DNA of 64,000 nt from assembly GCA_963969365.1 (NCBI GenBank), contig OZ017754.1, positions 930,001 through 994,000 on the forward strand, written 5' to 3'. A program made the translations under genes and the position numbers. Source of the stretch: Asterochloris sp. CNOR1. Its lineage: Eukaryota; Chlorophyta; Trebouxiophyceae; Trebouxiales; Trebouxiaceae. This document shows positions 2,111 through 63,950 of this stretch, piece by piece. Positions within the stretch are counted from its first letter, which is position 1; each line of letters begins with the position of its first letter. A model generated the notes under the pieces. That model had not been told where the DNA came from. It made no database searches and was given only the letters and a program-made list of their open reading frames with translations.

Positions 2111-5100
2111 ATGATGAATGTGCCCACTGAATTCATGGCAAGCCCTGCAGGACCCTCAGGCCCAATGCAGCAGCGCGCTCTGCAGCAGCCTGCTGCGGCA
2201 GCAAGCATTGGTGGCTTCCACGCCCTGCATGCGTCACACGCCTTTGGTCAGGCCAGCCAGGGTGGCATGGTCAGCTCGGCCGCGCATCCTGGCATGCACC
2301 CGGGCACAATGGCGCAGCCCCAGGCCGGGCCGGTTGCGTCCGGGCCCCAAAATGTTTCACCTGAGGAGTTTAATCAGATGCTCACGCAGGCGCATGAGGC
2401 ATATCGGGCCCATGACTTCAACAGGGCGCTGCAATTGTGCCAGTCGGTGCGCCTGCCTGCCAGAGGCCATTTGCTTGGGGATCCTGGCAGCCGGGAAGCA
2501 CGCCTGTTTGTGCAGGATGGTGCCTGGTCAGTCATGGTGGCAACATGCCTCCTGCACTTCTGGGAACCAATGACTGAGCTCTGCCTGCCTGATTGTCTTG
2601 CAGATGTCAGCAGGTGAACTGGGTCAGCCAAACAACAAGCCACTGTGCAAGCAGGCACACTGAGTGCCCCCTGGCAGCCACCTGCCAGGTGTAGCTGCCC
2701 TTGCAGCCGACCATCAGCTTGTGCCCTGGGTAGCACCAGCAGCAGCACTCCTGGGGCAGCCAGCTTTGCTCACCCTGTCCCATGTGTGCAGGTATATGTG
2801 GTCAACACCAACAGGACGGATGTGCTGCTGCTTGTTGGGGCCATCTACTACCAGCTGGGCAACTATGAGCAGTGCATCGCCTTCAATGACCGCTGCATTC
2901 TGCTGGACCCACATATGGTGGGCTGCAGAGCCCTTGTTTGCAGGGGCGATGCCTTGAGGCTGTGCTTTGCTGATGCTGCCGGATATATACATCGTGCCAG
3001 CTGCAGCATTGCTCTCCTGGAGAGCTTGGATGCAGTAGAGCAAGCATGGCTGCTCTGAAGCGTCACCAGATCTGCTGCCCGTGTCTCTGCTGACAGTGAG
3101 CGGGATCTGCCTATCGTTCCCTGCCAAGCAGCACATGCTCAAGTGCATCGTGAGAGCTCTTGGCTGTGTGAGGAAGTATGTGGCCATGGCAGCCCATAAA
3201 AAGCTGTCCTTGCCTCTCTCGGGGGGCGGGGGGTGCAGCCGGGCCATGGCAGGCATCCCCTGCTGCTTCCAGGCCCCCACTTTGCCAGCACATGTCTGGT
3301 GGAGAGCTGATGACTCCAGCTGGCCTGCTGCAGGCAGAGGCTCATGCCAATCTGGCCAACGCGCTCCAGCAGCTGGGGAACTTTGACATGGCCGTGATCT
3401 ACTATCAGGTGAGCTTTCTTGCTGCATATAGTCCTTTGCAGATCTGGCACTGATTTCAATAGGCCGCAGCCACGCTTATGTGGGCATGGGTCAGCCTCCA
3501 GTAAAGCGTATGTTGGCTGACATGTCAACCCCTGCACAGCTTGATCAGTCTTGCTGGCTGCAGGGCTTGCCTTTGGCAGAGCACTAAGCCAAATGGCTGC
3601 TGATGGTTGCCTGCCTACTACAATCACCACCTGGTGTTCGGCTGCTGCCTGCCAAACTCCTACTACTCTGCCCTTCTGCCACTGACGCCTGCCTGCCTCC
3701 CCGCTGCAGTCTAATCTGCGGCTGCGCCCCTCCTCACGGATGCAGATGTTGCTGTCTGGCACTCTGCTGTTGCAATGCCCTCTTTGCTTCAGTCTGCCTT
3801 GCTCTAGGGAAAGGTTCTGACAAGGCTACAGCAAGTAATGCGCAACCTGACTCGGGCCTGGTTCCTTGCTTGCAGTCTGGTCTGAGGCTGCAGCCTCTCT
3901 TGAAGGATGCGCACCACGCTTTTGCACACTCTGCTGCTGCCGATTTTCTCCTCTCAGCCATGGGCAGAGTCCCAGAAAAAGGTGCCCACAGGCCTGCAGC
4001 AACTGGGGTGCAGCTCACTGACTCAGGCTGCTTCCCTCGCCCTGCAGTCCGCCCTGCGGCTGAAGCCCACCTTCACGGATGCATACAACAACATGGCCAG
4101 TGCGCTGGTGCAGAAGGGCCTGATCCCCCAGGCAGTGGAGTGCTACAATGCGGCGCTGCAGATCAACCCCAGCCTAGTGAGTCCTGGTCGCGACACTGCT
4201 GCTCTGGCTGGCTGTAGGATTGCTGCAGGCAGGGTAGTGGGAGCACCACTGCTCCTGTAGCTGCCTCTGAGGTTGCTTCTGGAGACGCGCTGCCTGCACA
4301 GCGCTCTGCAGATTGAACTCGCTGGTGAGCAAATGAAGGGCATTGCTCCTCGAGCTGGGTATGGGATTGCCGCAGGCAACGGCGGGCTGCAATACAACAT
4401 CGCAGCTGGACCGCAGCGCTGTGAGCGCTGACGCTGACAACTGGCTGACTTAACCCATTGAAACCTTGGCCCTGAGTCATGCTGGCAGCAGCAGAGCAGC
4501 TGCTGCATCAGCTGGGTTCTGCTGCTGATGAGCTGAGGTGTCCATGTGGCCCAATGTCTTTGCGTAGTGCACAGATCAAGCTGAGGGAACCTGCAGGCCA
4601 CAAGCTCCTTTGATGCACCTGCTACTGCTGGGAGTGGTGGCATCCAGTGCAATTCTTGTTTGGTGGCTGCATGGCTAATGAGAGTCTCAAATGCATGTGC
4701 AGGTGGACGTGCACAACAACCTGGGGGACCTGTGGCGAGCGCAGGGGCAGGTGGGCAAACAGGCAGCCCAGCAGTGCTACAGCGAGGCGCTGCGAATTGA
4801 CCGCACATATGCGCCTGCCTGGCGGGGCATGGGGGACGTCTTCAGGGAGGGGAACGAGCACCAGCAGGCGGTGGCCTGCTATGAGGTGACCATCTGCAGT
4901 TGTGAGCATCTGGCAGGGGCATGATAGACCTTCCTGAGGAGGGGCCTGAGCCCCGCCAGACGGCGGCTTGCTGTGACGTGAGCGTTTGTAGTCAACAGTG
5001 ACTGGCTATGGCAGGAGGGACATCCTCAAGGGCCCCCAGCACCAGCCAGCTGTGGCCTGCTGCAAAGTGCTGGCATGCGCTTGGCTTTAGGCTGCCTCAC

Positions 5101-8100
5101 AGATTGTGACGAAAAGCCCACCAGCCTGCCAGCCTCATGCAGCACTTCTAGGAGCCAGTGTCCACTGCAAAGCTGTGCCCCAGCTTCACCACCTGCCGCC
5201 GGGCAGGAAGCAGCGTGAACGGTGGCCGCGTCCCAACTACACAGGTGCCATTCACAGACATGGGTTGTTGCTTCTCTATTTCCACCCAGGTGGTGACTGC
5301 CTGAGGAAGGCATGCGCCACCACACCAAGCCTGCATCAGCATGGGCATGTCGCACCATGACCACCATGCCGCAGGACTGACTGCAGAAGGCATGCCCAAT
5401 CATACCAAGGAGCCCAGGCGGGTTTCAATTCTACCAAGCCTACATCGTTGATTCAATGCTTGCCCTTGTCGCCTGCAGGAGGCCGTGCGGCTGCGCCCCA
5501 ACTATGCAGATGCCTACACAGGCATGGGAGTGTCGCTGAAGGAGCTCAAGCGCAAGGACGAGGCAGAGCACTGCTTTGCACAGGTGGTGCACCTGCGCCC
5601 TGGGTGCGCCCTCTCTCTAGGGAACCTGGCAGGTGGGCAGCAGAGCAGCATGGGCAGGCTGCCACCTTGGGCTGTACCTGATCATGTCCTCTCTGTCTCT
5701 TACTGCTGTGCTTTGCGAAGCACGCCCTCTCTCAGGGGGATCCAGCAGGTGGGCAGCACAGCAAGGTGTCTTGATCTGTAGCTTTGGCCAGGGAGCAGAG
5801 CAGGCTGCCCTTCCTGCTGGGTAATGTGGTGGCTTGTTGCACCCTCCCCGGCTGTGTACTGTTTGCGCACGTGATCGCCTGCGCGCGGGGTGTGCCATTG
5901 TCTGGGGGAAGCAGGTGGGCATGAGTCAGGGACCTTTTGCAGCGACTTGACAACCAGCCATACGGACAGGCAGATCTCCGCGCCCGGGAGATGACATTGC
6001 TGTGTCCTCCCTGGCCAAGCTGACGTCACTGTGCCAGCTGGTTGCCATCTCAATTGGAGGCGGGTGGCACCACAGTTGTGGGCAACCCTGCGCTGCATGT
6101 GTGCGGGCCTAGGTCTGGCTTGTTGTGCGGGCTTAGCCTGTGGGGTGGGCACTGGACAGGTCCGGCAGTGAGCCTCTGTCATGTCCCACTTGCTGGCAGC
6201 CTGGTGCAGCTCCTCTCAGCCGAGTCCCGGCTCCTGCTGCAGGTGTGTACTATGAGCAGGGTAAGCTGAATGAGGCCATCCAGACCTACCAGGAGGCCAT
6301 CTCACGGGAGCCCAACTTTCCAGAGGCCTACAACAACCTGGGCAACGCCCTGCGGGAGGCAGGGCGCACAGAGGAGGCAATCGCCTGCTACACAATGTGC
6401 ATCCAGCTGCAGTTTGCGCGGCCGCAGAACGCGCAGCTGGCGCGCGCGATGCAGGCCAACCCCCAGATGGCGGCAGTGCAGCAGGCGCAGAGGCTTGGGG
6501 TGGCCTACAACAACCTGGGGGGGATTCTCAAGCTGCAGGTGGGCTTCCGGAGGGTGTGGGGCGTTCTTTGGCTGTAAAGTTGACCTTAGGTGGAGCAGCC
6601 ACTGGGCCGTCTGCTGTACACTTGGTGGCAGCTCCTGTTGGCTGCCTGTGCTGTGGGGTCAAGAGGCGACGGTGCAGCTGCAGATGGGGTCGCCATCTGG
6701 GGACCTGCTGGGAGTCAGGTGCCTCTGTGTGTGTGGCTCGCCCCTGCTTGCCTGCACCCTCTGGAATGGCAAGTCTGTGTTGCTGTTCCTTCTCTAGCAG
6801 GCCAGCCCAGCCAGTTGTGCCCTTTGGTCCAGACCTTGTTCTTGGGGGTCATGCACCTGCCTCACTGAAACACGGCTGCTTCCAGCATACTTATCTAGGC
6901 CTGCCAAATGAAACAGACACCTGGCCCCCACCTTGCAGAACCATGCCATGGAGGCCATTGTTTGCTACAAGCATGTTTCCCCTGCTTCAGGGACCATAGC
7001 CTGCTGATGCCTGCCCGATTCCTGCCCTGCCTGCAGAAATCATTGGCAGATGCCACTGTCTGCTATGCCGTCAAGGGGCACTCCAGCCCGTTCCACTGCT
7101 CCAAATTATTGCCTGCCTGCGGCTCTGNNNNNNNNNNNNNNNNNNNNNNNNNNNNNNNNNNNNNNNNNNNNNNNNNNNNNNNNNNNNNNNNNNNNNNNNN
7201 NNNNNNNNNNNNNNNNNNNNNNNNNNNNNNNNNNNNNNNNNNNNNNNNNNNNNNNNNNNNNNNNNNNNNNNNNNNNNNNNNNNNNNNNNNNNNNNNNNNN
7301 NNNNNNNNNNNNNNNNNNNNNNNNNNNGTGCTGCGGGCCCACGCCTGCACGCTGCTCACTCCCTTTGCCGGCTGCTTCTGCAGGCACTGCTACAGCGAGC
7401 ACCTAGCCTACCTGCCCAATTGCTACTTTGTGAACGACTACAAGTCTGCACACATGGATGTGCTGGATGAACCAAATCTGCCCACCAGGTATGTCACCTT
7501 TACAGCTTCCCGTCTGCAGCTCTATGTCTGCCCCAAAATGTCTGCACACTAGCCTGAACTGTTAAGCATATGCTGGAGGAACCAAACCTGCCGGCCGGGT
7601 GCACACAAGGGGCTTGGCATTGTGGACTGTGCATCAATGCCTCAAGCTGAAGTTGCAGGTGCAGTGTCCAGCAAATGTCTGCTTGGCACACGCAACTGAG
7701 CATGGTTCCTGAAGACGGGGTCACTAGCGGCAGGCTGCATTGCAGCCCCCACAGACCAGCAATAATGCTCTGAAGCAGTGGGTGCCTGCCTGCAGAGCTG
7801 AGAATGGTCTGCCTGAAGACAAAATCATCTATGCCTGCTCCAACCAGTTGTATAAATACGATCCCGAAACCTTCAACTCCTGGTAAGAAGCTGGAGCTTA
7901 CTGCCTGCAGAAGATGCAGCACCTCCCTGCCATGCTTGAGGGCGTGCATAGCCCTTCGAGGTATCCCAGGTGCCCCAGCACTCAGCAACGCAATACTGCT
8001 CCAGCGCTGCTGCCCTTACAGCTTTGCATGCAGGCAGTTTCTGCCTCTCTTTGTAGCACGCTGCGCTCCAGAGAACGGACTGCATGTAGCAGTCGTAATG

Positions 8101-9932: not shown

Positions 9933-12900
9933 TCAAGACAGCTGTGCCATCATTTTTTGTGGCAGTGTGAGGCCACTCGGCTGCTGAATGTCATTTTGTG
10001 GCAGTCCTTCTTGATTGTTGGGGTCAAAATGGCTCTGCAACCCCAGCCAGCACTTGTAGTATCCTCTGTCCACATGCGGAGAGCCCAGGGCAGCTGCAGT
10101 GACGCGAGGGGTGAAGCTGGTTTCAAACATGAAGGCCAGCGTGTTGGCCGGCAGCTGCTGAGGCTCCTCAGACGTGGGAAGGATGGCACGCTCGTAGGTC
10201 TTTGTGTCGGGCCCATGTGGGGTCATGCAGAGGTGCAGGCTGGCACCTGTAGTACAGACTTGGGGACTGTGTCTCTCAAAGAGACAGACTGGTGCAGGGC
10301 TGTCAACAAAGCAACTACACGCAAGGACGGGCAGCCTCGGCTGGCAGAAGTCACTTTAGGCAGCTGCAGCTGTGGAGTCACCCCAAAGTCCATGTCAGCC
10401 ATAGAGCATCCCAAACCGAGTCAGCAGCTCACCACCAGGCAGGAAGCCCTCCTGTTTGGCTTCATACACTCCCCTGATGAGGCCCATGAACTCGTTCATG
10501 GCATTCCTGTGGTAGTCTGCAGACAAGCACAGGCTGAAGGAAGCATTACAGCCAGAACCGGCAGGTTAGCAGAGCAAGATAGCTGGCAACTTCATAGCAG
10601 CATGCAGGCAAGACAGACGTAGCTGGAGATGCCTTGTCGCCAGGATGGCCAGCTACCAGGGGTTGGGTTGCACAGCATGCCAGTAGGCGCTGGCTGCAAC
10701 ACATGCACTGGCTGCAAAAGCCCAACAGCCAGGCTGACAGCCCATGAGAACTCTTTGAGCTGGGGGCAGGAGTGGTTGCCAGCATGCTTACATGGCGGCC
10801 GGAAGGTGTGTTGCGACACAGTCCACCTTGGCGGGAAGATGACAAAGTCAGCTGTGGCCGTCCCTGCAGACAAGACAGCGCGCACTGCAGGCTCAGATGA
10901 GGGTAGTGACTAGCTTGCAATGGCAGCTTGCATGTTCACATGAAGGTGCCCTTTGTCATGGCCTCACGAGCTGGCTCAGGCCTACCTGCACAGCTTGCTT
11001 CAGGCCAGCGGCTGCATGCTTATGCAGTGCCAGAGCCAGCAAAGTAGCATCTGGTGCATTACAAGGCTTCACTAAGCCATACAGAGGTGAGCAGGACAGA
11101 TTGGCTACTGCCACAGGTGTTGCCCACAGCCACAGAAGCTGGCGGCTTCATTCACTTGCCTGGGATGGCTGAAGGGCAGGTGAGCACCGTGAAGATGCTG
11201 GGGTCTGGGTGGTCAAAGGCAACAGCGTTGACGGGGCAGAATTTAGCCAGATCATACTTGTAGGGCACATAATTGCCGTGCCAGGCCACCACATTGAAGG
11301 GCGAGAAGCTCTGGGCTGCTGAGAAGAGCTCCCCCTCAAACTTGTGAACCACCTGCAGGAAGGGGCGCCCCTGGCATCTGATGCTTGCTTGAGCAAGGTC
11401 AGAGCCTTGCTTGAGCCCCTTGTGCATAGACACACAGCATGGGCTGTGGCCTCGGCAGTGCCTGGGTGCCGGAGGGCACCATCATAGAGAGGGCAGGCCC
11501 AGCCTGCCGCAAGCTTGCCGTGGGAAAGGCTGTCGGCAAGACCTACCTCAAAGTGACATTGTCGCTCCTCAAAGTGTGCCACTGGCGTCTGGAAATCCCT
11601 GGGAGCTGCGAGGCCATTGCTGCCTGCAGGACACCTCCACAGAGTCAGCTCAGCGCCCCGTCACAGAAGCGCTGGCATGCCTAAAAAGAGGCATGCTTGT
11701 ATGGGCTTTGCTGCTTGCCCTTGCGCAACTTCCCCACGCAATGGCAATCACATTGATGGGAGCAAGCTTCTAAACGTCTTGAAAGGTGCTCCACGTGCAG
11801 AGCATGCCTATCAAGCTCATGCACAGCCCCAGGATCTCAGCTGCAACCAGGTCTGCTACCTGGCGGTGCGCTGCAAACACCTCCCAGCACATGGTCCTTG
11901 ACAGGTTACACGGGGTTTTCACCTATGTGGCCCAGGTCTGGCTTAATGAAGGTGCCCTGCAAAACCCTTTGACACAGCAGATTGCAAGTGCACCCACCAA
12001 TGGGGCCCAGGTCTGGCAGCTGGAAGTGCCCCGCAAACACCTCCAGCACGTAGCCCCGGGCAGCTGCTGTGTCCTGGAGCCCCACTGAGAAGCGCATGCC
12101 GCGCTGCACCACGCAGACCTCCCCAGGCGCCACGTGCATCAGCCCAAACTCCGTTGTCATCACCAGGGTCCCTGCGGGCGGGGAAACGAGGGCCATGCTG
12201 CACAGCATTCACTTCTGCATGCACATGCACAGCACACGGCTTGCCAGGTGGCAGGGCAGCAGTGCGGCACGGCAGCGCCAGCAGCCATGCTGAAGAAACA
12301 TCAGAGATGCAGGCGACAGCAGCTACATGGGACCTGCCTTGCTGCGGCACAATCAGCATGTCCCCATCAGCGTTGCCCATGCAACAGTCCACCATTGAAG
12401 CGTTGGCTGTGTAGACGTGGATGGCAAACCCCTCCTTCTTGCCAGGGCTGCAGGCACAGGAGACAGTGTGCCAGAATGCAAAATATCCTCCACGCTGCAG
12501 AAAGCCAGGTGCAGGCGCTGCACAGCCATGTTCAACATGCCCAGGCACTCTCCTTGACAATGATGCCCGCCGCAGGAGCCTAGCAGTTTGCAGCCCGGCA
12601 TGCTTTGCTGGCAGCCAGCTGCCAATATTGGCAGGCCCCTGCCGACACCCAAGTCTGCACATAGCCTAAGCTTCACAGGTGTACAGCTCTGACAGCAGCA
12701 GACATGCAGAGCCTGACACTGGACTGGGAGTACCTGCCAGCCCCACAAATGGTGGTCAGCCCATGAATGAAGTCAGTCTCGGCATCTGTCGGGATGGTAA
12801 AGGGCCGCCAGCGCAGCTGGTTGGGCGTCACCACAGCGTGCTCAAAGTTGCCTGCACAGGGCAGCTTGTCTTAGCAGCTTCTGCTGGTTGGTGCAGACAG

Positions 12901-13962: not shown

Positions 13963-15925
13963 TTACCTGTCATCTTTCACACTGTCATTACTCTGAAGAT
14001 CAGCAAGCTTCACCTTTGCCAGGCTTTCCACAATGCGAACGGCTCCTTGGAAGTCTTCAGACTTTGTGGATCTCGTGTAAGTGATCAGGCAGGGCATACC
14101 TGCACCTAGGGCAGCCTGCGCACAGGAGGCGCGGCTCAGAAGCATGAGCTTTGCAGAGCCAAGCATCAAGCACCAGTACAGCATTGCTAGCTTGCCTGCA
14201 GCCCGATTTTGCTGTCCTCGACGACAAGACAGTTTTCTGGCTTCACCCCCAGCCGCTCTGATGCAATTTTGTAGATGGAGGGGTCGGGTTTCTTGGCCGG
14301 GATGTCATCCCCTGCCAGGAAGCAATCCAGCGCCTGCAGCAGGACAGGGCGCCCATGAGCCAGTGGGAGGGCGGCGGGGCCAGTCAGCGCCTTTTATGTG
14401 ACCTGCGGCAAGTAGGCATTCAAGGTGTCGTGGAGCAAGCAGGAGCCAGCATGAGCAGCAGTACAAGATGCAAAGGCGGCAGCCGCCACACATGCAGCCA
14501 TGCAGCCAGCCTAGTCACACTGAGCAGCGCCGTGACATGAAGGCAGCGATGGCCAGCCTACCCAGATGCAGGTACAGGGCGAGCCTGTGAACATGCTGGC
14601 GCAGAGACACAATTTGCCCAGAGGTGGGCGCACCTCATAGCGCTGCTCGCCCAAGAGGTTCTTGATACAGAAGGCCACACTGCTCTTGGTAGCTGCGCTG
14701 CATACTGCCAGCTTGAGCCCTTCTGCACGTGCCTCATCAAGCAGCTCCATCACCCCTGGCCGCGCATGCACGCTGTCGCTCGCTGCAGCGCAAGACATGA
14801 ACCTCCAGCCATTTTTACTCTGCAGCTGATCTGGCTTTGCACAAACACGGTGTCAGCCAGGGGATGTGCATGCCCACTTTAGCTGGCTGCAGTGCAGGCC
14901 CCAAGCCAACACAGGACAAGCTGTTGGGAGACAAGCATGGCCATGTAGGCTGCTGCTGGCTGCATTTCAACAGCCTGCTGAGCAAGGAGGCCATTTCTGC
15001 TGCACAACCAGCCATCGACACAGCCTTCACCACCTCCAGGCACCGCAACAAATGATTGCAGAGCCATTTGTGCATAGCAAAAATGCACGCTTGTATATTG
15101 CGTGTTATTCCTGCCTCGCACAGTCTCAACATCAACATGGGCTCACCTATGAGGTCCCGGTATTTGTCTGACTTCCAGTCTTGCAGGGCATCTATGAGGG
15201 ACGTCTGCTCGCCCTCTTCACTGGGCACATGGGGCAGGAAGTTGGAGGAGGGCCAGCCATGCTCACCTGCAGGCATGCTCCTGTGAGGTCGCCAAGGGTC
15301 AGTGCAAACGGTAGCTTGACCTTGCAGGATGCAGTAGACAGGCAATCAGGCCTCTGCAGTACGTGAGCGGGCAAGCCGTGCCATGGCTTGAATAACATGA
15401 AGGATGAATTTTGGCAATTCATTTCTGCGGCACAGCGATGCATTCCTATTTGAGATGTAGGGTCAAACAGACAGGTTGCCATGCCTGTGCCCTTGTCCCC
15501 TGCAGGCCAGCTTTCAGGTATTCACAATGCAGGGTCTCACCAAAGTGGTACCTCATTTTGGGCTTGCCCCCGCCCACTTTGTTCTGAAGCATATCGTAGT
15601 ACTCCTCGCTCCATGACACATCGCGATTGTCAATCTTGAGGCCAAAGTGTTTAAAGGCTGCATTGTACGCTTCCCGGTGCAGGTCCTCAGATTCAACAAT
15701 AACACCTACAGTGATGCAGCAAGGACTTTGTCGAAGAACAGCTGAGACTGAGCAGTGGCCTGACAAAGAGTAAGGAGATAAGCACACACCATCACAATCA
15801 AAGACCAGCGCCTCCAAAGCTGCCCTGCAGATGCCTGAAGCTGCATGCTGCTGATGCGGCCTTGCTGGCCCCTGACGTCGGCAGCTCTGGGGGTGCCTGT
15901 ATCCCTGCAGCCTGGAAGCAGGCAT
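13963..15925 (-). CDS. HAD-superfamily phosphatase, CbbY-like (At4g39970 type)
   Basis: Predicted sugar-phosphate-type phosphatase of the haloacid dehalogenase family; plant relatives are plastid-targeted (family knowledge). Exons: 15790-15925, 15541-15705, 15147-15266, 14634-14782, 14196-14333 and 13963-14115, summing to 286 residues. All four HAD motifs are present: the nucleophile in LVFDCDGVIVESEDLHREAY, the Ser/Thr in CSAATKSS, the Lys in AKKPDPSIY and the acidic pair in CLVVEDSKIG. VGGGKPKMRYHFGE marks the subfamily. The first 33 residues are rich in Arg, Gln and Ala and could be a transit peptide, but the start is uncertain because exon-like pieces lie further upstream. The intron after 14196 uses a GC donor (CAG then GCAAGC). 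The gene ends only about 145 bases from the start of HGD on the same strand. Confidence 0.9.
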
Positions 15926-17214: not shown

Positions 17215-20200
17215 TCAAGCATCTACCATGTCAATCTCTTCGGGAGGGTCTGCCTTGCTAATCTGCTCAGCCTTGGAGAGCTGGTCTGTGAGAAAGTCCT
17301 TCACCCTGGGCATCATCCGCTGCATCATCTGGGCAAAGGCCAGAGTGTCGCTGGTCTTAATGACCTCCTGCAGCCAGGGTGTTGCTTTTCAGAGACCACC
17401 ATAGTAGTGCATGCCACTGACCTTGTGAGGGTGTATGAGAGCATCCACTCTTCTCTCTGCATCAGAGCTTGCTTTTGCATTTGAGCTGTGCCCAAGCCGC
17501 TCTGTCAAGCGTCAAGCTTCACCCACCCTGTGCACACAAAGCCATGCCTTTTGCTGCGCAGCAACCCCACCTTGGCTTTTCCTAAAAGCATAAAGCGTCA
17601 TTTCGTAACAAGCTGAGTGCAGAGGCCACTACTGCAATCCCCGCAGTGAAGCTCTGGGTGCATGCTTGCATTTCCCCCACAATCTCACCTCATAATTCTC
17701 CAGAGCATAGATGGCACACAGCCGGCCCAGCAGGTGCGCGCTGAAGTTTTCAGACAGCTCAAAGGTGTAGGTCAGGTTGTCCACTGACAGCTGCTTGCTG
17801 ATGGCCTGCTCGCACAGGCGCTTGAGCCCATCCAGCATGTACTGGTCAGCAGCTTGTAGCAGGGCCTCAGCATTCTCCCCCGTGACGTCAGTGCTGCCTG
17901 CAGGTCACGAGGTGGAGGCTGAGAGCCCATGCTGCTGGGCAGCTGACAGCAAATCTCAATACATGCTACATCTGAAGATGTTATGTCAGGGCTTTGGGAT
18001 GTGCTCACTTGATCAACTTCAGCAGGAGGGCAGCGCAGACTGGGCCAACTGGCTTGGCTGAGAGCTTATTTGACCAAGCCCCATTGAGCAGGAAGCATGC
18101 AGGCCAGCTTGACAGGGGCGTCAAGCAGATGGGAAAGGCATGGCAGGTAAGACTGACTGAGCAGATGCAGACCCTCGAGGGCTGCGCACCTTGTAGCTGA
18201 ATAAAGCACAGGCAGCAGGGGCCAGCCAGGCCAGCAGCTGCAGGCCGTTGCCTGCGTACCTTGAAGGAGGCAGGCAGGCACTAGATGCACTACATGCCTA
18301 AGGGGGGTGTCTGCCTGTGGCATGAAATGCACCATGGGTGCAGCACAGAGGCGCAGAGCCAGCTATAGGACAAAGCAGGGGCTGCAAGCTGCCCACCTGT
18401 GTAGATGGCACGCATCATGGATGTGAAGACAGGCCACTTGATGTTAGGCACAGGGATGGTGGAGGCCTCCTTCTCCTTGTAGTGGCCGTCAAACATGGCC
18501 CTGCATGAATGACCCGCATTGTAACCAGATATCTGTGCTGTGCTGGACCTTGCCCCCAAGGCCGTCACGCACTAGGAGAGAGCAGGTTGCTGCATTGAAG
18601 ATGCACATCAAGCATTTACAGCAGTACACATGTGCATGCATGCGTCTGTGGAAGCTAGGCCTGTGGTTGCTGCACACAAGGCACAGGTCAAGCATAAGGG
18701 ACGTGACTGTACTGTGCCCAGCAAAGCAGAGAAAGGCAGAGGCTGAAAAAGCTCTGCCTGACATCCCACAGAGCACAAGCACACAGGCAGGTTGTGAATG
18801 CCACATCTGTCCAAGAAATGAATGCTCCATGGATGGCTACAGAAGGCCGCTGTGACTCCCAACACCTAGCTCAAGCAGGGGCAAGCACAGAGAGGTAGGG
18901 ACTGCTGCACTTACCTGAAGATGTCTGAGCTGGCCAGTAGGGCAATACGGTGGGCAAAAAACTCCCTGTTCTCCACCAAGAAGGTGACATCGGAGAGTGT
19001 CTGATTGTTCACAAACTTCTCACCCAAGTACACCTGCACTCAACGACTAGCATGTGCACCAATGACAGCACTGTGGGCCCTTCAAATGCTGGGCTGCGGC
19101 CACTGTCTGTGCAGCATCTTCCCAATCTAGCACAACCATGCGCTATATGCATTGCTGCAGCCATTGCCTGGCTGCTTCCTCACAAGCTGCACAAGGGGTT
19201 TCCTGATGGGCGCTGGCAGGAAACCCAGGCAGCGGGCTGCCAATGGGTGACAGTACCCCACCTACCTGTGGCTTAGGGGCCTCAGGCTGGCAATCAATGA
19301 CATTACTGGTGTCTAGCTTGATACGGTCTACCAGGGCACACAGTGCACCTGCAGCCAGGGCAACAGGCAGTGGTCAGGGGCCAGCTCTGATGAGCTGCAC
19401 ACCACAGAAAGGAGCTGCAGTGCCTTGCTTGAGCGACTAATTTGTTGGAGCAGGCAGACTGCGAGTAGCACCGAAAACAGGTGCTAAGGAGCTGCACATC
19501 ATGCACAATCTGGCAGATGCAGACTGCTGGAGCTCCACGCATGCTGCCTTCTTCTGCATCATGGCTGCAGCCTGGCATCCGCAGGGTACGCCCTACAATG
19601 CCCCATTGTTGCTGGTGCTTGTGCTGTCACGAGGGTACTCACCTGCTGCCTCCTTCTGCACGCTGGCCTCCTTGCGGCTGTCAGTCAGCAGCTCCAGCAG
19701 GATCTCCAGCCCCTTGCGGTTGACAAAGCATTCTCGCAGGTCTGTCGGCTTGGCCAGCCGTGCCAGCGCCATTGCCACTCGTTGCTGCAACTGCTTGTCA
19801 GTGGCCTGCAGAGAGGAAGGGGTGGTGTTGTTGAGATGGCACAGCTTATTACCTACTTTGTCTCTTTTGCAGCACATGAGTGAAGGGATGCCATAAACAT
19901 GTCAAGTGAACGGCGTCCAAGCACGGGGCACCTGGACTTGTTCTGAAGGCCCAGACAGAGTAAGCTCTAGATTGCGCAACCAACACATCCAAACAGGGCC
20001 TCAGGACACCAGCAAGGATACAGGGACACGCCCTCACTGTGAATGCTGACCTGAGCAGAATGCATGCTATACAAAATTTGCTTCAGAACGTGGCCCTCAA
20101 TCTTCTCCTCCAGCCGCTTGATGGTCTTTTGAACGCAGTCCTTGGATGCCTGCAGGATGACAAGCCATGTGAGCTACGGGATACAGAAGGGCAGCCACAT

Positions 20201-28820: not shown

Positions 28821-30678
28821 ATGGGTATCGCTCTTCTCCTGGCTGGTGCCCTGTTTGCTGCACCGTGCTTAGCTCAATATGTTGACGCCCCCACCCCCGA
28901 TGACTTTGTTTCTGAGTATGGCACAGCAGCTTATGCCTATCAGCCCTCGCTCAACAACAATTCTGCCACAACGGTAAATTACAAACAGTCCTATGCAGCA
29001 CATGATCTGATCACCTAGGGCTTAACCAAGTCACAAGTCCGGCTGGCCCAACAGCTCTGCCTGGATGCTGGGGCTCCCCTGTCCTGTCTTGGGCATACCT
29101 GGGTGCCTGAGAGGCCGTCTGCTGTGACTGCAGACGACTCTGGGAGCCCAGACGCAAAATCGTGATGAGCCCCAGATGCCCGTCCTTGAGGGCTCAGGCA
29201 TTGCCCAAAACAGCTTCCTGCTGGCTGCGTGTGCCCTGCGCACACCGCACGTCCACCCCAATGCCCATGGCCTGCTGTACGTTGTGAATGGTGAGGGATG
29301 AAAACTTCTTTTGCTTGCTGTGCAATGGGTCAAGCCAGGATCTACATGCAGAGGCTGAGTGCTTGCCAGCTGTGCACTGCTGACTTCTGAGGGGCCCTCT
29401 GCTGTGGCTCACTGCTTGTGGCTTCTGCTGCAGCCGCCAGTCTGGAAGTTGGATTTGTAACAGTCAACGGCACCCTGGTCAACAACACCCTGGCCTCAGG
29501 CGGCACCACCCTCTTCCCCATCGGTGGGTTATGTTCTTTGTGCTCGGCAGTGTAGGAGGCTCTGACTATAACATCACATCTCACAGCAGCCAGTGACTTC
29601 TGCTTGACAGCCTTGCGCAGGCTGAGCTGGTGTCTCTGTCTGCATCAGCCCTGCACCCTCCTTGAGCCGCAAAGCCTTCCATCCACATGGCAGCCACCAG
29701 TGAGGCCCCAATGGGCGCCATCATTGGCCCACCTGTGCATGCTGCCTTCAGTTGGGGGGGAGGGATGGTTTTCTCTGTGTGGTCTCCCCACAGCTTTGCT
29801 TGTGGTGTGCTGTGCCCCGTGTCTGACCGTCCCTGTGCTTTGTACAGGGCTAGTGCATTGCCCGTTCAGCTCAGGCTACTCAGCAGGGGCTTGCTCTAAG
29901 CGTTTGATTTCACCACAGCTTTGCTTGTGCTGTGCTGTGCCCCCTGTCTGACCCTCGATGGCCTTCACTGCCTGCAGGGCTGTGGCACTACCAGTGTTCA
30001 CCACAGCTCTGCTTGTGCTGTGCTGTGCCGCCAGTCTGAGTATCCCTGTGTTCTGCCTGCAGGGCTGTTGCACTATCAGTTCAACTCGGGCTGCTCCGAT
30101 GCAACATACACCATCTCTTACACTGCCTCTGACCCCCAAACCCAGAACGCTGTGGCAGCCCTGCTCAAGTTGCCTGTTGACCTGGTGGCCACTGCCCTGG
30201 GCACCACCACAGACGCCATCACAGCCCTCAAGTCTGGGACACCCAGTGGCAACTTCGTGCAGCGCGACCCTGCCTGCATAGCCAGGTGACTGCGGTAGCC
30301 TGCAGTGCAGCTCCATCAGTCTGGTTGGCTTCCTCCAAATGTGTGATCCTCCGTTGGCCAAGTGACTGCGCTCCCAGATCCATGTTGCTGTCCAATTCTC
30401 AGCTAGGCTGTGAGGCTGAAGTTTTAACTTGGGGCTGCCCTGCTGGGCTGGGCTGCACCGGCTCTTGACAGCATGTGCGGCTGCACTGAGATGGTGTGCC
30501 TCAAGTCAGGCATCCTTTGAAACTTTACTGGGTATTGAGAGCCCGCCAACCCGCCAGCTTGGCATTGCCTTTGCCACATGTGTGCATTACAAGCTGTTGC
30601 TGATGCAGGTGTGGCGCTCAGACCTCCGGCAATCTGACCAGCACTCTGCCATCCGGCACTGTGCAGGCCAGCGGCTGA
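28821..30678 (+). CDS. Germin-like cupin protein, secreted
   Basis: Five exons keep phase: 28821-28973, 29134-29290, 29434-29523, 30063-30285 and 30609-30678, giving about 230 residues, the usual germin-like length. The N-terminus is a signal peptide (MGIALLLAGALFAAPCLA before QYVDAP), so the protein should enter the secretory pathway. Cupin motif 1 reads RTPHVHPNAHGLLYVVNG: the two His of the HxH are kept, but the usual Glu ligand position is Gly. Motif 2 reads TLFPIGLLHYQFNSG with its His and Asn in place. Families of this fold include oxalate oxidases and Mn superoxide dismutases; loss of the Glu makes classical activity doubtful. An ATG at 28731 is possible but would bury the signal peptide. 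If the last intron is not used, translation stops at 30287-30289. Confidence 0.82.
29787..30090 (+). repeat. Three-unit ladder of germin intron-exon boundary copies
   Basis: Three similar units begin near 29787, 29911 and 29999, each with CACAGCT(T/C)TGCTTGTG, then a TGTGCTGTGCC stretch, a (C)AGGGCT acceptor-like site and the start of the exon GGCT(G)...CA(C/T)T. Only the last unit leads into the true exon at 30063. The first two are eroded copies of the branch region, acceptor and exon start. Confidence 0.8.
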
Positions 30679-44200: not shown

Positions 44201-47200
44201 GCCTGCTGGGCACTCCAGTCCTGTACGCATTGAGCCAGCATACTGGGCGCTGGTCGCCTAGCAGGGTCATGCAAGCGTCTGCAGCGGTCTGCCATCAAAG
44301 AGGGTGCGTGTATCTCTGCAAGCCCTGCGCCCAGCACAGATGCCTGGTGTGGGACTGCTGACACAGCAACACAGCTGACACCACTCTAGGCAGCATGCCT
44401 ATGAGCTGTGGCAGGTTGTAAGCACACACCTTGCACAATCTCCTCAACTTCCTTGCTGCTGAGGTAGGACCGGTAGATGTCGCGCTGCTCCTTGGACAGT
44501 TTGCAGAAGAGGACCTGCAGGCAGGCAAGGCACTTTAAAGCTAGACAAAACACTGTTGTCACTGTCTGTCCATTGCCAACAGGCGCCTGAACAGCTTGCA
44601 GAGCAGCATCTGCTGCCAAGTCAGGTAAAGAGGAGTATGTGAGCCCACGACACGCGGTCCAGCCGCCTGGACAGTGGGCAACAAGCCCCTGGCGCCAGGG
44701 CCTGCCTGTGGTGCTGACTGTAGAACTTTCGCGGCCACATGGGGGCAGTCAATGTACACGAGCAGCTTCTGCAGGGATTGAGGTCTGCAGGGTGTGCAAC
44801 CTGCTATAGCAGCCACCTGCTCTGTTTTCTGAGGTAGCTGGGCATTGACGTCAGCCTTGCGCCGCCGTAGCAGGTAGGGGGAGATGAGGTCGCGCAGCAC
44901 TACTGCGCATTTGTAGGCGGTAGTCACCTGAAGACAGACAGAGCAGGGCAATGCTCATACAGGGATACCACAGGAAGCAGGTAAACTTGCAGGAGGGATC
45001 CTGGTCACCTGCAGCCAGTGGGGGCAGGCGGTGTGATACGTGTAAGAGAGACCACAGGCAGTGGTTGCCCCTCAAGAGGGGCTGTAGTCACCTGCAGCCA
45101 GCAAAGGAGGCAACCCGATGAAAAGGCCAGCACAGGTGCAGGGTGTGCCCAGATGGGACAGGGTTGCCTGCAGCCGGGGCAGACAGACACTGGGACCAGG
45201 ACACCTTGCAGGCACTTGATGGTCTGCAGCAGTTTAATAGCCCCTGAGGAGCCCTCCTGCTGTGTAAGAATAACAGCTCCCACGGACGGCAACAAGATAA
45301 GGGCCGAGCAGGACTGCCAGGCCTCACACATCAACTGCTCAGGGCAGCCAGAAGTGTCTGCAGAGGGCTTGACTGTCCCGATCAGGCATGCATCATCATG
45401 CTGGCCAGGCCTGCCCGCACTTGCGGGGTCAGCCTAGTTGCCAGGTTGTTTGGGCAGTGCTTTAGGTTCACAGATGCCAGCGCACCCCCCACTGCTGCAG
45501 ACAGCACAGGATCACTGTGGGCCAGGCCCACCTGCACTTGCGAGGCGTTGGCATAGCCACCAAACTGGATGGGGAGCGCGAACTGGGTGGTGAACACAGG
45601 CAGCGTGCCCAACTTGCCAGGGAAGACGTAGTCAAACAGGGACCAGAGCTCTGCCAGCTTGTTCTGAATGGGGCTGCCAGTCATGATGATCCTGTGCACA
45701 GTCTGCAGCTGCTTGGCCACCAGCGTGACCTGCAGACACAGCAAGTCAGATCAAGTGTGTATACCAGCAGGATGCATCAACACTGGGGCTGAGGGTTGGG
45801 TATTGCAAGCACGGGGCTGTGCCTCAGCATCTGGCCTGTCAGGCATGAACCAGTCAGGGAGCTGATCAAAGCAGCTTTGCTGGCACGACATGCCTGCTGC
45901 AAGCAGGTGAACCCACCTCAGCATCTGGATTGCGAATTTTGTGGCCCTCGTCCAGTATGGCATAGCCCCAGGGGACATGCAGGAGCTCATCGCGCTGCAG
46001 GCGAAGCTGCTCGTAGCTGGTGACCAGCACGCCTGCGGGGGACTTAGCTATAGATGCGACGAGGTCCCTGCACACAGTGAGGCTCTGCATCACGATCAGG
46101 TGTTTGGCTCGCAAGTCGGGCTGCCAAATCCACTCATTCCAGTCAGGATAGTTGTGAGGCTCTGCAGATGTGTGCGGCACACTGTAGCGCTGGCATGCAG
46201 ACCCAAGTCTGAAAAGAGCTTGAATCGCTCCCTGCAGAGGATCACTGGGTCTGTGGGACCTGGGCCAGCACAGCGCGCACTGCATGTGCGTAAAGTCTTC
46301 AAGGCTGCGCTGACGTGCATGACACTGCAGAGCACAAAAGCATGAGGACTCCCTCAGCTGCGATGTGCCCACTGCAGCGCTGCATGTAGCAGCTGCCTGT
46401 GGAAGGACAAGGCCAGATTGCGGGACTTCAAAGGTGGCTGTTGTCCTTCTTATTTGAGTGTTGATGCTTGCACTGCAGACCTCTAACAGGTCATGCGCAA
46501 CAGGACAGTGTGGGTGACGCAGGCAGGAAATTGAAGCAGAAGCAGCAGTTTTGTGCGAAGTACTGCCTACCTGCGGCTCTGCCGAATCCTGCTGCTGCTC
46601 TTGGAGCTGTCGTGCAGAATGACAACACGGAACAGAGGATACCACAAGCGCAGCTCGCGCAGCCACTGCCGTAGTACGGTTGCAGGACACACAATCAGGG
46701 TGGGCTTGAACAGCCCGCTCTGATGAAGACCTGCCAGGAAGGCGGCCAGCTGGACCGTCTTGCCCAACCCCATCTCTGCAGCAGGACGCATTGTAATTTC
46801 AGCAGCGTTCATGGTTCTCGCCAAGGCCCTTGTCTGCGGCACCGCGAAGCATCCTCTGCTCACACCTGAGCCACATCAAGAGTGCTCAACCCTGGTGCTG
46901 CCGCAGCAATGCATGCGGGCACAATGATGCCCGGTCCCTAGCATTGCATTCCTGCCAGCTATGCTCAGCACTAGCAGACAGGTGCAAAGGCAGCATCATG
47001 AAGCAGTGCTCGGCACCTTCGGCATGCAGGAGATGACTTACCATCACCAATGATCCCTCCTGCACGCTGAGTGTGCAGCTCCCAAAGCCACTTGACACCT
47101 GCATCACTCAAGTGCTTTGATTGGCAAAGCTAGGACTGCTGAAGCAGCTGACTGCTGGGCATGCAGCGGCGCACTGTTCCAGGATCAGACAGCATGTATT

Positions 47201-52327: not shown

Positions 52328-55004
52328 ATGGCTGGCAAAATGCGATGGGGAGACACTCTTGACGAGGACACTTCCGATGTCCTGCCTGAGAGATCAGTGG
52401 TGGGGCCAGATGCCAAGGGCTACAAGACTGTGACGGAGTACAAGAAGAATGACAAAGGCGAAACTGTGAGGATGGTCACCAAAACACGGCTGAGCAAAGT
52501 CGAAAAGAAGCTCTATGCGGTGAGCTGCCTGACAGCAGTACTGGCCATGCTGGGGCATGAGAGGTCTGGCAGCTCTTGGGATCACATGTATGTTGCTGTG
52601 TGCCAGGCCACTGGAGGTATCATTCGCTCTCAAACCTCCACTCTGCGGCCACTGGCTCGCTGTGGGGGCTCTCCAGTGCAACTGCTGCCTGTGACCCCTG
52701 CTGCCAGGGTCTGCCGTGCATCACCTGCCCTGCCACCCGGCCTCAGTGCTCTGTGTGCCGTCAGTCTGTTGCTTTGCCATGCATCCCTTGGCCTGGCACG
52801 GCCCAAACCCAGCTCACGTGTCTGAATCTGCACCTGTAGTCTGCCCGAGAGCAATGGCACTGCATGCGCTCTCCACCGCCCTGGCTCGAACTTGTCGTTA
52901 CCTCCCTGTGCCTCCTGTCGGTGCAAGAGTGGCAGCAGCAGAGGTGCTAGGCTGTGGTAGCCATGCCACGTACCACCCTGTCCACCTATTTGAGCATTAT
53001 GTCTGACTGCCTTCCTGCAGTCAGTGCAAGAGCGGCGGGAGTGGAAGCGATTTGGTGACGCGGTGGCGCAGCAGCCAGACCACTCAGTCACCGTGCAGTC
53101 CAACGATGACATCCCCTTTGAGCGCACGCGCCAGCAGAAGACCACTCGTGATGAGAAGCAGCAGATGACCCTGCAGAGCGCTCTGGCCCAGAACGACAAG
53201 AATGCTGTGACTGCTAAGTGAGTGGCCTATCTGGAAGGCAGCTGTCAGGGTGCTGGACGTCCGGGCTGGTCAGGAACAGCTGAATTGCCGTGACTGCCAA
53301 GTGAGCTGTGCATCCCAAGCAAACAGCTGTTGCGTTGACATTTGTTATCAACGTGTGCAGCAATAGGCGCGACTAGAAGTAAGCTGGGCTTTTCTCATTG
53401 GCAGGCAGCTGTGGGGGCTTCTGTTTTGCCCCTGCAGCCTCCATGACACAAGCGATGAGCTGTCTGCCACGTAGAGAGCAGCTCTGGCTGAGGACCCTGC
53501 ACTCACTTTCCTGGCAGCATCACAGCAGCAGTTGCTGATGTATGTGGCAGCAATGTCACACCGCATTCAGCCCTTGGCCTCTTGGGTGTCAGACAAAAAT
53601 GTGAGACCGCCGCCCTGTGGTGACTTGCTGACCAGGCAAGTGCCCAGAATCTTGTGATCATCTCCCTCTGCCTACAGCTTGAAGGACCTGCTGTACAAGC
53701 GGCGCATGGAGAGGCAGCTGGCAGCAGCCAGGGGGGAGCTGCAGGGCGACAAGCCCCCCGAGGAGGTAGGACAAACTTCATGTCTGACACACAAGATGGT
53801 GAGCTCCTGGCCAGGCAAGCTGCCCCCACAACAGCAGGCTGCCTGCTGGCTGGTGCTGTTTCTGCCATTGTTGGCAAGTTCCTCGCTTCCATGCTGCCTG
53901 CGCACTGAATGGCGTGAGCGCATGCAGGGATGCAGTCTTGGCTGGGATGGTGGACTCACACTGCTTGACGGCCCCAAGGCAACCACTGCATGTTCACGCC
54001 CTGCCCCTGGCAGGCAGCAGGGGTGGCTACCTCCTACATGTCCCGCTGCATGTCTTGCCAAGGGAGCTGTGCCCCTCCCTGCAGGATGGCGCCCCTGGAA
54101 GCCTGCCGCCAGCAGGCAGCAAGGGCGGCTACATCCCGCCCAGCCTGCGCAACCGCGCGCCGGGCGATGTCGGGGAGAGCATGACCAAGCGGCGGGAGGA
54201 GAACAGTGTGCGGGTGACCAACCTGTCCGAGGACACACGGGAGGAGGACCTCAGGGTGGGTGGGCACGGCGCGGGTCTGCCATCCAACAGCAGGGGAACC
54301 TTGAGTGCTGCAGCTGCTGTGATACAGGCCAGGCAGCAGCAGGGCAGCATGTCATGCAGTGCTTCAGAAAGGCTGTGGTCGAGCTGCCCTGGGCTGGCAT
54401 GCAAAACCCCCCCCCCCCCCCCCCCCTCCTGCATCATCCCCTGCGGCCATGGCCCCCCCCCCAACCGGGGTCACCTTCATAAGCATCTTGTCCTCCTGCA
54501 GAGTGCCGTGCTCTGGGCTTCCTGTGCTGCAAGTGCTGTGCACCGACTGCGTTGAGTAACTCATGTCCCTTTTCACTACCTCTACATGCTGTGCCTGTGC
54601 TGCAGGATCTTTTCAGTCCATTTGGCCCCATCTCTCGTGTCTACATCGCTTACGACAGGGACACTGGCGAGAACAGGGGGTTTGCCTTTGTCAATTTCGT
54701 GTACAGGTGAGGCACACTGCCTGCTGAGCAATACTGACTTTAGGTTTTGTCACCCTCTTGGGGCAGCCTCCGCTTGGGGCAGCCTGCTGGAGTACACTCC
54801 TCTGAAGACATCTCCTTGCATCCAACAAGCAGAGCAGGCTGCATCACCTGTTCTTGCAACTCTGTTGCCCGCACTGCATTGTCATGTGTTGTTGTTTTGT
54901 TCTACAGGGAGGATGCACAGAGGGCCATCACAAAGCTGGATGGTTATGGATATGACAACCTCATTTTGCGCGTAGAGTGGGCCCAGCCAAGAGCAGAACG
55001 CTAG
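52328..55004 (+). CDS. eIF3g: Eukaryotic translation initiation factor 3 subunit G
   Basis: RNA-binding subunit of the eIF3 complex, involved in scanning and reinitiation in the cytosol. Six exons: 52328-52519, 53021-53217, 53678-53765, 54085-54255, 54606-54706 and 54908-55004, about 281 residues. The N-terminus MAGKMRWGDTLDED and WKRFGDA are typical. The C-terminal RRM has RNP2 VRVTNL and RNP1 RGFAFVNF, framed by SEDTREEDL, SPFGPISRVYIAYDRDTGE and KLDGYGYDNLILRVEWA. The zinc knuckle that usually precedes YKDLL is not seen: exon 2 joins directly to NLKDLLYKRRME. The start is the ATG at 52328; the TTG 15 bases earlier is unlikely. An echo of the exon 2 end with donor occurs at 53281-53310, and of exon 4 at about 54009-54056. 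Confidence 0.95.
54407..54426 (+). repeat. Run of 20 C in an eIF3g intron
   Basis: A homopolymer of 20 C lies between exons 54085-54255 and 54606-54706, close to further C-rich sequence. Its length is likely to be unreliable in the assembly. It does not affect coding. Confidence 0.9.
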
Positions 55005-55198
55005 AGCAGGGCCCGCCTCACACTGCAAGCTTTGCTTCAAGACTATGCTGGGCCTAATTCAGGCAGTTGAAGGATTCAAGGCAGCAGGTTGATATTAGCC
55101 ACGTTTGCGCTGAGAGCAGAGAAGCAGGGCAAGGGCGATCAGTACGGGCCAAAATCTGGTTTAGCAGCGAAGGGTACTACAGGGCATGAGCACGGGGA

Positions 55199-56831: not shown

Positions 56832-57021
56832 TTGGGGTTGCTATCAGATGCTCACTGCTGGGCTGATGCCCCGGCAGAATAGCCTAGCATGCGTTAGGGT
56901 GGCTGAGAAAGAAAGAAGAACATAATACAGATCTCTCAGACTGACCATTGCTAACGACGTTGTCTTTGCTCTAACTGCATTACAGGGTCTTTTTCCCAGG
57001 CTTCACGAGTTGGGTGTCAGG

Positions 57022-63500: not shown

Positions 63501-63950
63501 TCTTGCATCTGCGCAACTGTACCCTGCTGCACAACATACAGCAGCACACAGCACTGCCTGCACACTGCCCCTGCACCGTGTTCAGGTTCAGGCTCTAGGT
63601 GCCCCTGCCGACAGCAGAAGGGGATGGCACAGGTGGGCCGGGATGTGGGTGGGCTTAGTACGTAACACTTGCGTGCAGGAGGGGCCCTGGGCACTCAGGA
63701 GCACCATGAGAAGCAGTTGAGAGCGGTGAAGCGTGACATGGGTGGGCCATACAATGTGCCCTGGTGCGTGCAGGTCCAGGCCCTGGGCACTCAGAAGGAG
63801 CAGCTTCAGAAGCGGGTGATAGAGGTGGAGCGTGAGCGCGGGCTGTTCTTTCGTCACATGGAGGAACTGCGTCGGCACAGCACCACCCTGCAAGAGGACA
63901 ATGGGCGCCTGCTGACAGAGTTGAATAAGCTGAGACAGGCAATGAAACAG
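60562..63950 (+). CDS. bZIP transcription factor (3' end outside the window)
   Basis: Nuclear DNA-binding regulator. Five exons keep phase: 60562-60681, 60886-61138, 61954-62091, 62722-62936 and 63774-63950, with a donor at 63951, so the gene continues to the right. The N-terminal part is low complexity with basic stretches (RASRGGRGR; SARAGKGRKRP) and an acidic segment (EEDIDFALDDGEDLDEE). Exon 4 has an AT-hook-like IGRPRKYDG and the bZIP basic region KRRIANRESAARVRNRR. Exon 5 is a long zipper-like coiled coil (EQLQKRVIEVERERG, LQEDNGRLLTELNKLRQ). The second exon could also start at 60877 in the same frame. No closer subfamily is assigned. Confidence 0.85.
62155..62205 (+). repeat. Decayed copy of a bZIP-gene exon end and donor
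   Basis: The end of exon 61954-62091 (GGGGAGGACCTGGACGAGGA, then GCCCACAA and GTAGG) is echoed as GGGGAGGATGAGGTGGACC followed by GGAAGAGGAGCTCACAA and AAAG. The donor GT is lost in the copy. A third faint echo may lie near 62600-62640. Confidence 0.6.
63575..63750 (+). repeat. Two decayed copies of the zipper exon start
   Basis: Upstream of the exon at 63774 its acceptor and start (GTGCAG then GTCCAGGCCCTGGGCACTCA) are echoed at 63674-63748 (GTGCAGGAGGGGCCCTGGGC) and more weakly at about 63580-63650 (GTTCAGGCTCTAGGTGCCCC). Both contain frame breaks. Confidence 0.7.

What the first reader, a model, noticed from the sequence alone, without database searches (positions are those of the whole stretch)
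3704..63748. Introns across the window carry eroded tandem copies of the neighbouring exon edge with its splice site
The same pattern recurs in at least seven unrelated genes on both strands: the O-GlcNAc transferase, ARIA, germin-like, GCNA, CSB, eIF3g and bZIP genes. The copies are 40-100 bases, span the exon-intron junction, and sit in the intron next to the exon they copy. This suggests that introns in this genome grow by repeated local duplication across splice junctions followed by decay. I do not know a named mechanism that predicts it.
Basis: partly seen in the sequence, partly recalled or inferred. Interest (0 to 1): 0.85.

Follow-up and report, generated by a model that had tools for sequence, protein, structure and literature searches.

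The report
Introns grown from duplicated exon edges
In this genome many introns, above all the long ones, contain decayed copies of the end of the exon next door together with its splice site, apparently because short stretches of DNA straddling the splice site were duplicated head to tail and the spare copy was left to decay inside the intron.

Summary
In 364 kb (window plus 30 ten-kb samples; home-made gene models), 50-base probes across splice junctions match their own adjacent intron in 36 of 644 tests. They match introns of other loci in 19 of 12,880, the intron on the exon's far side in 2 of 486, and their own intron reversed in 0 of 644. Without the window the own-intron count is 23 of 522.

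Best explanation: short tandem duplications (smallest lag 69-130 bp at 36 of 61 junctions) that straddle a splice junction. Splicing keeps using the exon-side site, so mRNA is unchanged and the spare copy decays neutrally. Support: lags in 1:2(:3) series at 9 of 11 multi-copy junctions, a young 5 x 85 bp head-to-tail array, lag unrelated to frame, and a steep rise with intron length (4 of 187 introns under 250 bp; 22 of 38 at 500 bp or more). Each ingredient is known; ten searches listed no genome-wide account of it as a mode of intron growth. Exon edges exceed a neutral simulation about twofold; unexplained.

The parts
3871..4089 (+). TPR/O-GlcNAc-transferase gene: intron copy 3871-3917 of the acceptor-side exon edge 4043-4089 (junction 4047), lag 172; a further copy 3693-3734 at lag 338
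4824..5061 (+). Same gene: donor edge 4824-4929 (exon end 4885), copy 4916-5021 (lag 92, aligned 106, identity 0.64), third copy 5029-5061 (lag 181)
5607..5763 (+). Same gene: donor edge 5607-5647 (exon end 5632) copied at 5723-5763, 83% over 41, lag 116
11847..12050 (-). Homogentisate 1,2-dioxygenase: donor edge (junction at 11997/11998) copied at 11920-11963 (lag 75) and 11847-11890 (lag 160)
   Evidence: exon supported by gap-free alignment to the human enzyme 1ey2/1eyb across the junction
14764..14896 (-). Arm/BTB (ARIA-like) gene: acceptor edge 14764-14792 copied at 14868-14896, lag 104
20111..20236 (-). Arm/BTB gene: acceptor edge 20111-20155 copied at 20192-20236, lag 81
23259..23639 (-). 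Arm/BTB gene: acceptor edge 23259-23297 copied at 23601-23639, 85% over 39, lag 342
29777..30096 (+). Germin-like (cupin) gene: three-unit array (29777-, 29902-, 29997-) whose last unit carries the acceptor and exon start at 30063
33541..33977 (-). SprT-like (GCNA) gene: four units at a spacing of about 110 bp, lags 116/224/333, carrying an exon edge and splice signal; exact used junction depends on gene model
36131..36259 (-). GCNA gene: acceptor edge 36131-36180 copied at 36210-36259, lag 79
39498..39929 (-). CSB gene: young array of five head-to-tail 85-bp units, 96% matches, whose exon-side unit holds the last 9 exon bases and the donor (junction 39920)
42643..42785 (-). CSB gene: donor-side exon edge 42733-42785 copied at 42643-42695, lag 90; exon is in the conserved helicase core
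43427..43585 (-). CSB gene: acceptor edge 43427-43467 copied at 43545-43585, lag 118
44493..44625 (-). CSB gene: acceptor edge 44493-44530 copied at 44588-44625, lag 95
44916..45545 (-). CSB gene: one intron (44928-45531) with a copy of each of its two exon edges (45080-45101 of the acceptor edge, 45403-45428 of the donor edge)
52911..53041 (+). eIF3g gene: acceptor edge 53014-53041 copied at 52911-52938, lag 103
54000..54136 (+). eIF3g gene: exon start region 54102-54136 copied at 54000-54034, lag 102
63670..63835 (+). bZIP gene: 63765-63835 (acceptor at 63774 plus exon start) copied at 63670-63736, 79% over 71, lag 95-99

Best explanation
Short head-to-tail duplications of DNA, most often of roughly 70-130 bp, arise locally in this genome. 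When one straddles an exon-intron junction, both copies carry exon edge plus splice site. The spliceosome keeps using the exon-side copy (first donor or last acceptor), so the mRNA is unchanged and the intron is one unit longer. The inner copy is then free to mutate, and the exon copy is held by selection. Repetition adds further units, so long introns are partly built from eroded exon-edge arrays. Shown: local direct repeats, adjacency to the own exon, head-to-tail periodicity, decay without coding constraint, link to intron length. Inferred: the DNA-level cause (most likely repair of adjacent single-strand nicks or patch repair), the order of events and neutrality.
For: Adjacent against non-adjacent introns: 36 of 644 vs 19 of 12,880. 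Local direct repeats at lags 12-600 in 264 kb: 277 pairs against 30 expected from far lags, with the excess per offset highest at lags of about 75-115 and falling beyond. Smallest lag per junction: 36 of 61 lie between 69 and 130. Of 11 junctions with two or more copies, 9 have lags in a ratio of 1.9-2.13, one of them continuing to 2.87. A young array, five 85-bp units at 96%, includes the donor; in L006 a 53-bp two-copy unit spans an acceptor. Mismatches by codon position of the exon copy are 0.197, 0.209 and 0.274, and lag mod 3 is even (18, 21, 22), so the intron copy shows no coding constraint. Copies rise with intron length: 4 of 187, 15 of 87, 15 of 63, 22 of 38; outside the window 4 of 171, 7 of 64, 12 of 52, 11 of 25. 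Length-matched introns elsewhere: 1 of 1,079 (summed over its five classes; own introns there 1 of 63, 3 of 109, 12 of 87, 11 of 63, 20 of 38). One of five settings of a neutral simulation (units 30-100 bp, old, with indels) gives matched segments like those seen (median 41, exon part 29, intron part 10, against exon part 30 and intron part 7) and extension scores near the null level.
Against: Exon-edge coverage relative to intron 20-60 bp away is 2.68 (bootstrap 1.78-4.25 by intron, 1.47-4.04 by locus). The simulations gave 0.84-1.36, 1.38-1.49 and 1.36-1.65. Coverage falls off faster into the exon than simulated (0.21 against 0.32-0.62). Lags under 65 are rare among exon-intron pairs (3 of 74) but common within introns (19 of 59), which a blind process does not predict. 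Most matched segments are much shorter than the lag and do not extend, which decay can explain but which is not direct evidence for whole-unit duplication. The circular-shift test shows no significant intron-junction excess and fewer exon-junction pairs than expected (46 vs 38.3; 14 vs 23.5). Gene models are ab initio without RNA data. No related genome was available to see an event happen.
Confidence: 0.75

Rival explanations
1. Duplications happen anywhere with equal probability and exon edges only look special because the exon copy is conserved, so old duplications stay visible there (pure ascertainment).
For: Simulations with a conserved exon copy raise detection of junction-spanning over intron-internal duplications (for example 0.24-0.27 against 0.15 in one setting). 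Exon-edge coverage is within error of intron interior coverage (edge/interior 1.36, 0.94-2.01 by intron). The circular-shift test gives no significant excess.
Against: None of the 20 simulated settings reached the observed edge/near-intron ratio of 2.68 or the steep fall into the exon, although the locus bootstrap lower bound of 1.47 overlaps the simulated range at the default lag limit. This is a sub-case of the best explanation rather than a different process.
Confidence: 0.4
2. Splice-junction-directed duplication: something tied to transcription or splicing (R-loops, nicking at exon edges, nucleosome edges) makes breaks at junctions, so duplication is targeted there.
For: About twofold residual excess of exon edges over simulation (against 46 and 47), and a narrower exon extent than simulated.
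Against: Direct repeats of the same lag range are common deep inside introns (interior coverage 7.9%; for lags 65-200 the median lag is 108 within introns and 109 for exon-intron pairs). Selection or intron turnover could make the same excess.
Confidence: 0.15
3. Intron birth by tandem duplication of an AGGT-containing exon piece (Rogers model), so that the intron itself is the duplicated unit.
For: 2 of 402 introns have donor and acceptor flanks alike at score 20 or more, 0 expected: L022 intron of 126 bp with lag exactly 126 across CAG|GTGCAG, and L008 intron of 155 bp with lag 145.
Against: Only 2 of 402 introns; most copies lie one or more units inside a longer intron.
Confidence: 0.05
4. 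The intron copies are functional: alternative exons or decoy splice sites kept by selection.
For: Among alignments spanning the junction by 6 or more bases, copies keep GT in 8 of 14 and AG in 17 of 22; over all 61 junctions 12 of 28 and 20 of 33.
Against: 25 of 36 is near what 77% identity per base gives for two bases; codon positions 1 and 2 mismatch at about 20%, and lags ignore frame.
Confidence: 0.04

Closest known systems
[quoted passage not shown] ATP2A1 of Hellsten 2011, known here through citation; potato RdRp, Ma 2016, PMC4974935)
   Same: Tandem duplication involving splice signals. The potato case crosses an intron-exon boundary, as here.
   Different: There a new intron is created; the potato paper reports a single case. 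Here an existing intron is lengthened, repeatedly and in many genes; only 2 of 402 introns fit the birth model.
Short tandem duplications by patch-mediated or paired-nick DNA repair in plants (Vaughn and Bennetzen 2014 and Schiml 2016, known here only through citations in PMC7971508 and PMC7407515)
   Same: Perfect head-to-tail insertions whose share declines past 125 bp in rice, close to the range of the lag peak here.
   Different: Described as a general insertion mechanism in rice; in the passages read it was not tied to splice junctions or to intron length. Repair origin is not tested here.
Intron sliding and exon tandem duplication in Drosophila (Lehmann 2010, PMC2891723, abstract read)
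   Same: Duplicated exon sequence becomes intronic.
   Different: Concerns novel intron positions (25 cases); not intron growth.
Long introns of core-Reinhardtinia green algae (Craig 2021, PMC8226300, passages read)
   Same: Similar intron lengths, with the driver of length left open in the passages read.
   Different: No junction-spanning repeats mentioned in the passages read.

Membership tests
Tandem duplication (head-to-tail) as the mutational event | Copies on the same strand, close together, in unit-spaced series | tested here: met
   17 direct against 1 inverted pair; lag series of 1:2(:3) at 9 of 11 multi-copy junctions; young arrays
Tandem duplication (head-to-tail) as the mutational event | Aligned length equals the lag in undecayed copies | tested here: inconclusive
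   Met in the CSB array, L006 (52 of 53) and 4824-4929 (106 at lag 92), but most segments are much shorter than the lag (median length/lag 0.33 over all pair classes); simulated decay gives similarly short segments
Intron gain by tandem duplication (Rogers) | Donor and acceptor lie in the two copies, intron length equals the unit | tested here: not met
   2 of 402 introns; not met as a general account
Patch-mediated or paired-nick repair duplications | Size range with decline past about 125 bp | tested here: met
   lag profile; smallest lags per junction (36 of 61 at 69-130, 22 of 61 above 130, some of which may be multiples); comparison value from PMC7971508
Patch-mediated or paired-nick repair duplications | Little or no pre-existing microhomology at the ends | not tested
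   Most copies are too decayed to place ends
Introner elements / transposed introns | Related sequences in introns of unrelated genes | tested here: not met
   19 of 12,880 junction probes match introns of other loci; whole introns were not compared with each other
Alternative (duplicated) exons | Copy under coding constraint, frame kept | tested here: not met

The most novel reading that the evidence does not exclude
Duplication is coupled to splice junctions: breaks or nicks at exon edges during transcription or splicing produce unit duplications of about 100 bp there more often than elsewhere, so that intron length in this lineage is mainly a record of repeated junction duplications, with close decoy sites (under 65 bp) purged by selection.
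Probability: 0.2. Interest if true: 0.85.

Novelty: new variant of a known kind. Interest (0 to 1): 0.6.

Why it matters
How introns gain length without transposons is poorly known, and a paper on Chlamydomonas and its relatives leaves the driver of their long introns open in the passages I read (PMC8226300). Here intron length can be read partly as a count of tandem duplications anchored to the exon edge. The exon copy acts as a preserved ancestor against which the decay of the intron copy can be dated, event by event. That makes intron growth directly testable with one related genome.

Tried and rejected
Raw circular-shift placement test: gave no significant intron-junction excess (observed vs mean of 300 shifts: intron-junction 46 vs 38.3, junction-junction 23 vs 13.8, exon-junction 14 vs 23.5, exon-intron 60 vs 70.6, intron-intron 91 vs 102.8, exon-exon 87 vs 43.4, intergenic-intergenic 8 vs 23.4). 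It used all noisy gene models on 264 kb and a repeat-coding gene near 37.2-37.8 kb, so I moved to filtered introns and probes. Kept and reported as evidence against.

Gene-finder settings: the first runs over-split or fused genes; settings, retrained, are used. Filters from then on keep 375 of 831 predicted introns; the probe tests use 322 of them and the Rogers test, with a looser filter, 402. Introns dropped by the filter were not examined for exon-edge copies apart.

Dispersed short templated insertion instead of tandem duplication: considered because matched segments end near the splice site and do not extend (intron-ward above the null 95th percentile in 1 of 59, exon-ward in 0 of 59). 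Simulated decay of tandem units gives similar shortness and extension scores, and multi-copy lags are unit-spaced, so I did not adopt it; it is not excluded for single copies.

Coding-repeat artefact: the TPR and Arm genes could mimic lags near 102 or 126 bp, and the Arm gene does show lags of 102 and 104. Across 61 junctions lags are not tied to frame, and copies also occur in the non-repetitive HGD and CSB genes. One counted junction (window 37309) lies in coding-type repeats and was not removed from the counts.

Novelty searches: ten full-text searches (one search returned nothing), listings only except the papers named. None listed a genome-wide account of intron growth by junction-spanning tandem duplication. 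The library lacks most subscription papers; three papers asked for were not held.

Full report
Setting. The window lies in an unnamed 56.4-Mb, 21-contig genome. Its genes (Arm+BTB ARIA-like, germin-like cupin, TPR/O-GlcNAc transferase) and the TGCAG acceptors suggest a green alga; that is my inference and was not tested. I trained a simple ab initio gene finder on it. The acceptor is strongly TGCAG. Homology supports the exons where tested. Homogentisate dioxygenase aligns to the human enzyme without a gap across the junction used below. The CSB helicase core aligns to RAD26 and ERCC6. Pfam domains fit the other named genes (bZIP just under its cut-off).

The repeats are local and direct. In the window, 17 of 18 self-matches at E<=0.01 are direct and all 17 lie within 1 kb. 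At a looser threshold there are 60 direct pairs within 500 bp, against 22 inverted pairs of which 21 lie within 100 bp. In 264 kb, 277 ungapped pairs at lags 12-600 compare with 30 expected from lags near 3,000. The excess per offset is highest at about 75-115 bp and drops beyond, with a smaller rise at 170-190.

They attach to edges of the neighbouring exon. Probes of 25 exon plus 25 intron bases hit their own intron in 15 of 322 donors and 21 of 322 acceptors. They hit introns of other loci in 19 of 12,880 tests, other introns of the same locus and strand in 4 of 3,100, the intron on the far side of the same exon in 2 of 486, and their own intron reversed in 0 of 644. The control introns lacked their last 20 bases; with whole introns, acceptors included, the control rates were 0.1% (donor probes) and 0.4% (acceptor probes). 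Without the window the count is 23 of 522 (per-locus counts). Exon probes 60-110 bp from the junction hit in 1 of 486 (filter 4, score 28). Coverage by repeat pairs is about 8% at 0-20 bp inside the exon, near zero by 80 bp, 3% at 20-60 bp inside the intron, and 7.9% deep inside introns of 300 bp or more.

They form tandem series. At junctions with two or more copies, 9 of 11 show lags in a ratio of 1.9-2.13, one continuing to 2.87. The CSB intron holds five 85-bp head-to-tail units at 96%, the exon-side one containing the last nine exon bases and the donor. Older examples (HGD, GCNA, germin-like, OGT) align as two to four units of about 75-125 bp.

The inner copy decays freely. Across 61 junctions, mismatch by codon position of the exon copy is 114/579, 120/575 and 158/577, and lag modulo 3 is even. 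Splice dinucleotides in copies whose alignment spans the junction persist about as often as two bases at this identity would (25 of 36; over all 61 junctions 32 of 61). So the copies are neither coding nor visibly purged or kept as splice sites.

Intron length follows. Introns with an exon-edge copy: 4 of 187 under 250 bp, 15 of 87 at 250-350, 15 of 63 at 350-500, 22 of 38 at 500 or more. Outside the window: 4 of 171, 7 of 64, 12 of 52, 11 of 25. A matched comparison gives own introns 1 of 63, 3 of 109, 12 of 87, 11 of 63 and 20 of 38, against 0 of 189, 0 of 327, 0 of 261, 0 of 189 and 1 of 113 for length-matched introns elsewhere, so chance matches in longer targets do not explain it. Recognisable local repeats cover 16.1% of bases in introns of 500 bp or more against 0.7% in a reversed control. 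This is a minimum if older copies are no longer recognisable.

Does a blind process suffice? I simulated single tandem duplications placed evenly, rejected if wholly exonic or spanning a whole intron, followed by neutral decay with a conserved exon (20 settings). Old units of 30-100 bp with indels reproduce the short matched segments and the missing extension. No setting reproduced the strength of the exon edge. The ratio of exon 0-20 to intron 20-60 is 2.68 observed (1.78-4.25 by intron, 1.47-4.04 by locus) and 0.84-1.65 over the simulated settings. For lags of 65 or more it is 4.11 (2.14-6.41 by locus). Exon-intron pairs rarely have lags under 65 (3 of 74, against 19 of 59 intron-intron; outside the window 3 of 43 against 17 of 42). 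Selection against close competing splice sites would explain the latter, but the gene finder's own choice between two near sites could also contribute. Against a junction preference stands the circular-shift test.

Relation to known work. Rogers-type intron birth fits two introns (L008 and L022), 2 of 402. Ma et al. 2016 (PMC4974935; the first of five parts of the text and passages) describe one potato duplication that crosses an intron-exon boundary. A review (PMC3443670; passages) names tandem duplication as the one intron-gain mechanism shown in vivo. Rice structural variants show tandem duplications declining past 125 bp and attributed to repair of adjacent nicks (PMC7971508; passages). 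I therefore place the finding as a new variant of a known kind: known duplication events, acting widely across the genome to lengthen existing introns from their exon edges.

Limits. There is no RNA data, no related genome, and only 364 kb of 56.4 Mb sampled, with 20 of the 30 extra stretches on three contigs. Copies decayed below about 65% identity are invisible. One of the 61 counted junctions (window 37309) sits in coding-type repeats. The window is enriched over the sample (24 of 126 against 37 of 624 junctions), as expected for a window picked because the pattern was visible in it.

Noticed in passing
L022:3970-4095 (+) and L008:3132-3286 (-): Two introns whose donor and acceptor flanks are copies of each other (lag 126 = intron length 126; lag 145 for length 155): candidate intron births by tandem duplication.
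   Followed up: partly
window 37211-37821: About 81-bp tandem repeats in a predicted coding stretch at the end of the CSB model: probably coding repeats rather than intron decay.
   Followed up: no
window and L001-L030: Exon-intron repeat pairs with lags under 65 bp are rare (3 of 74) while intron-intron ones are common (19 of 59): possible purge of close decoy splice sites.
   Followed up: partly
window 10356-13818 (-): Homogentisate 1,2-dioxygenase gene with two exon-edge copies, not named in the finding.
   Followed up: yes
window 24-108, 24500-24554: Other short tandem duplications (41 bp x 2.1, 90% matches; 26 bp x 2.1, 100%) in predicted non-coding or mixed sequence.
   Followed up: no
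window: 200 N bases (an assembly gap or masked stretch) lie inside the window.
   Followed up: no
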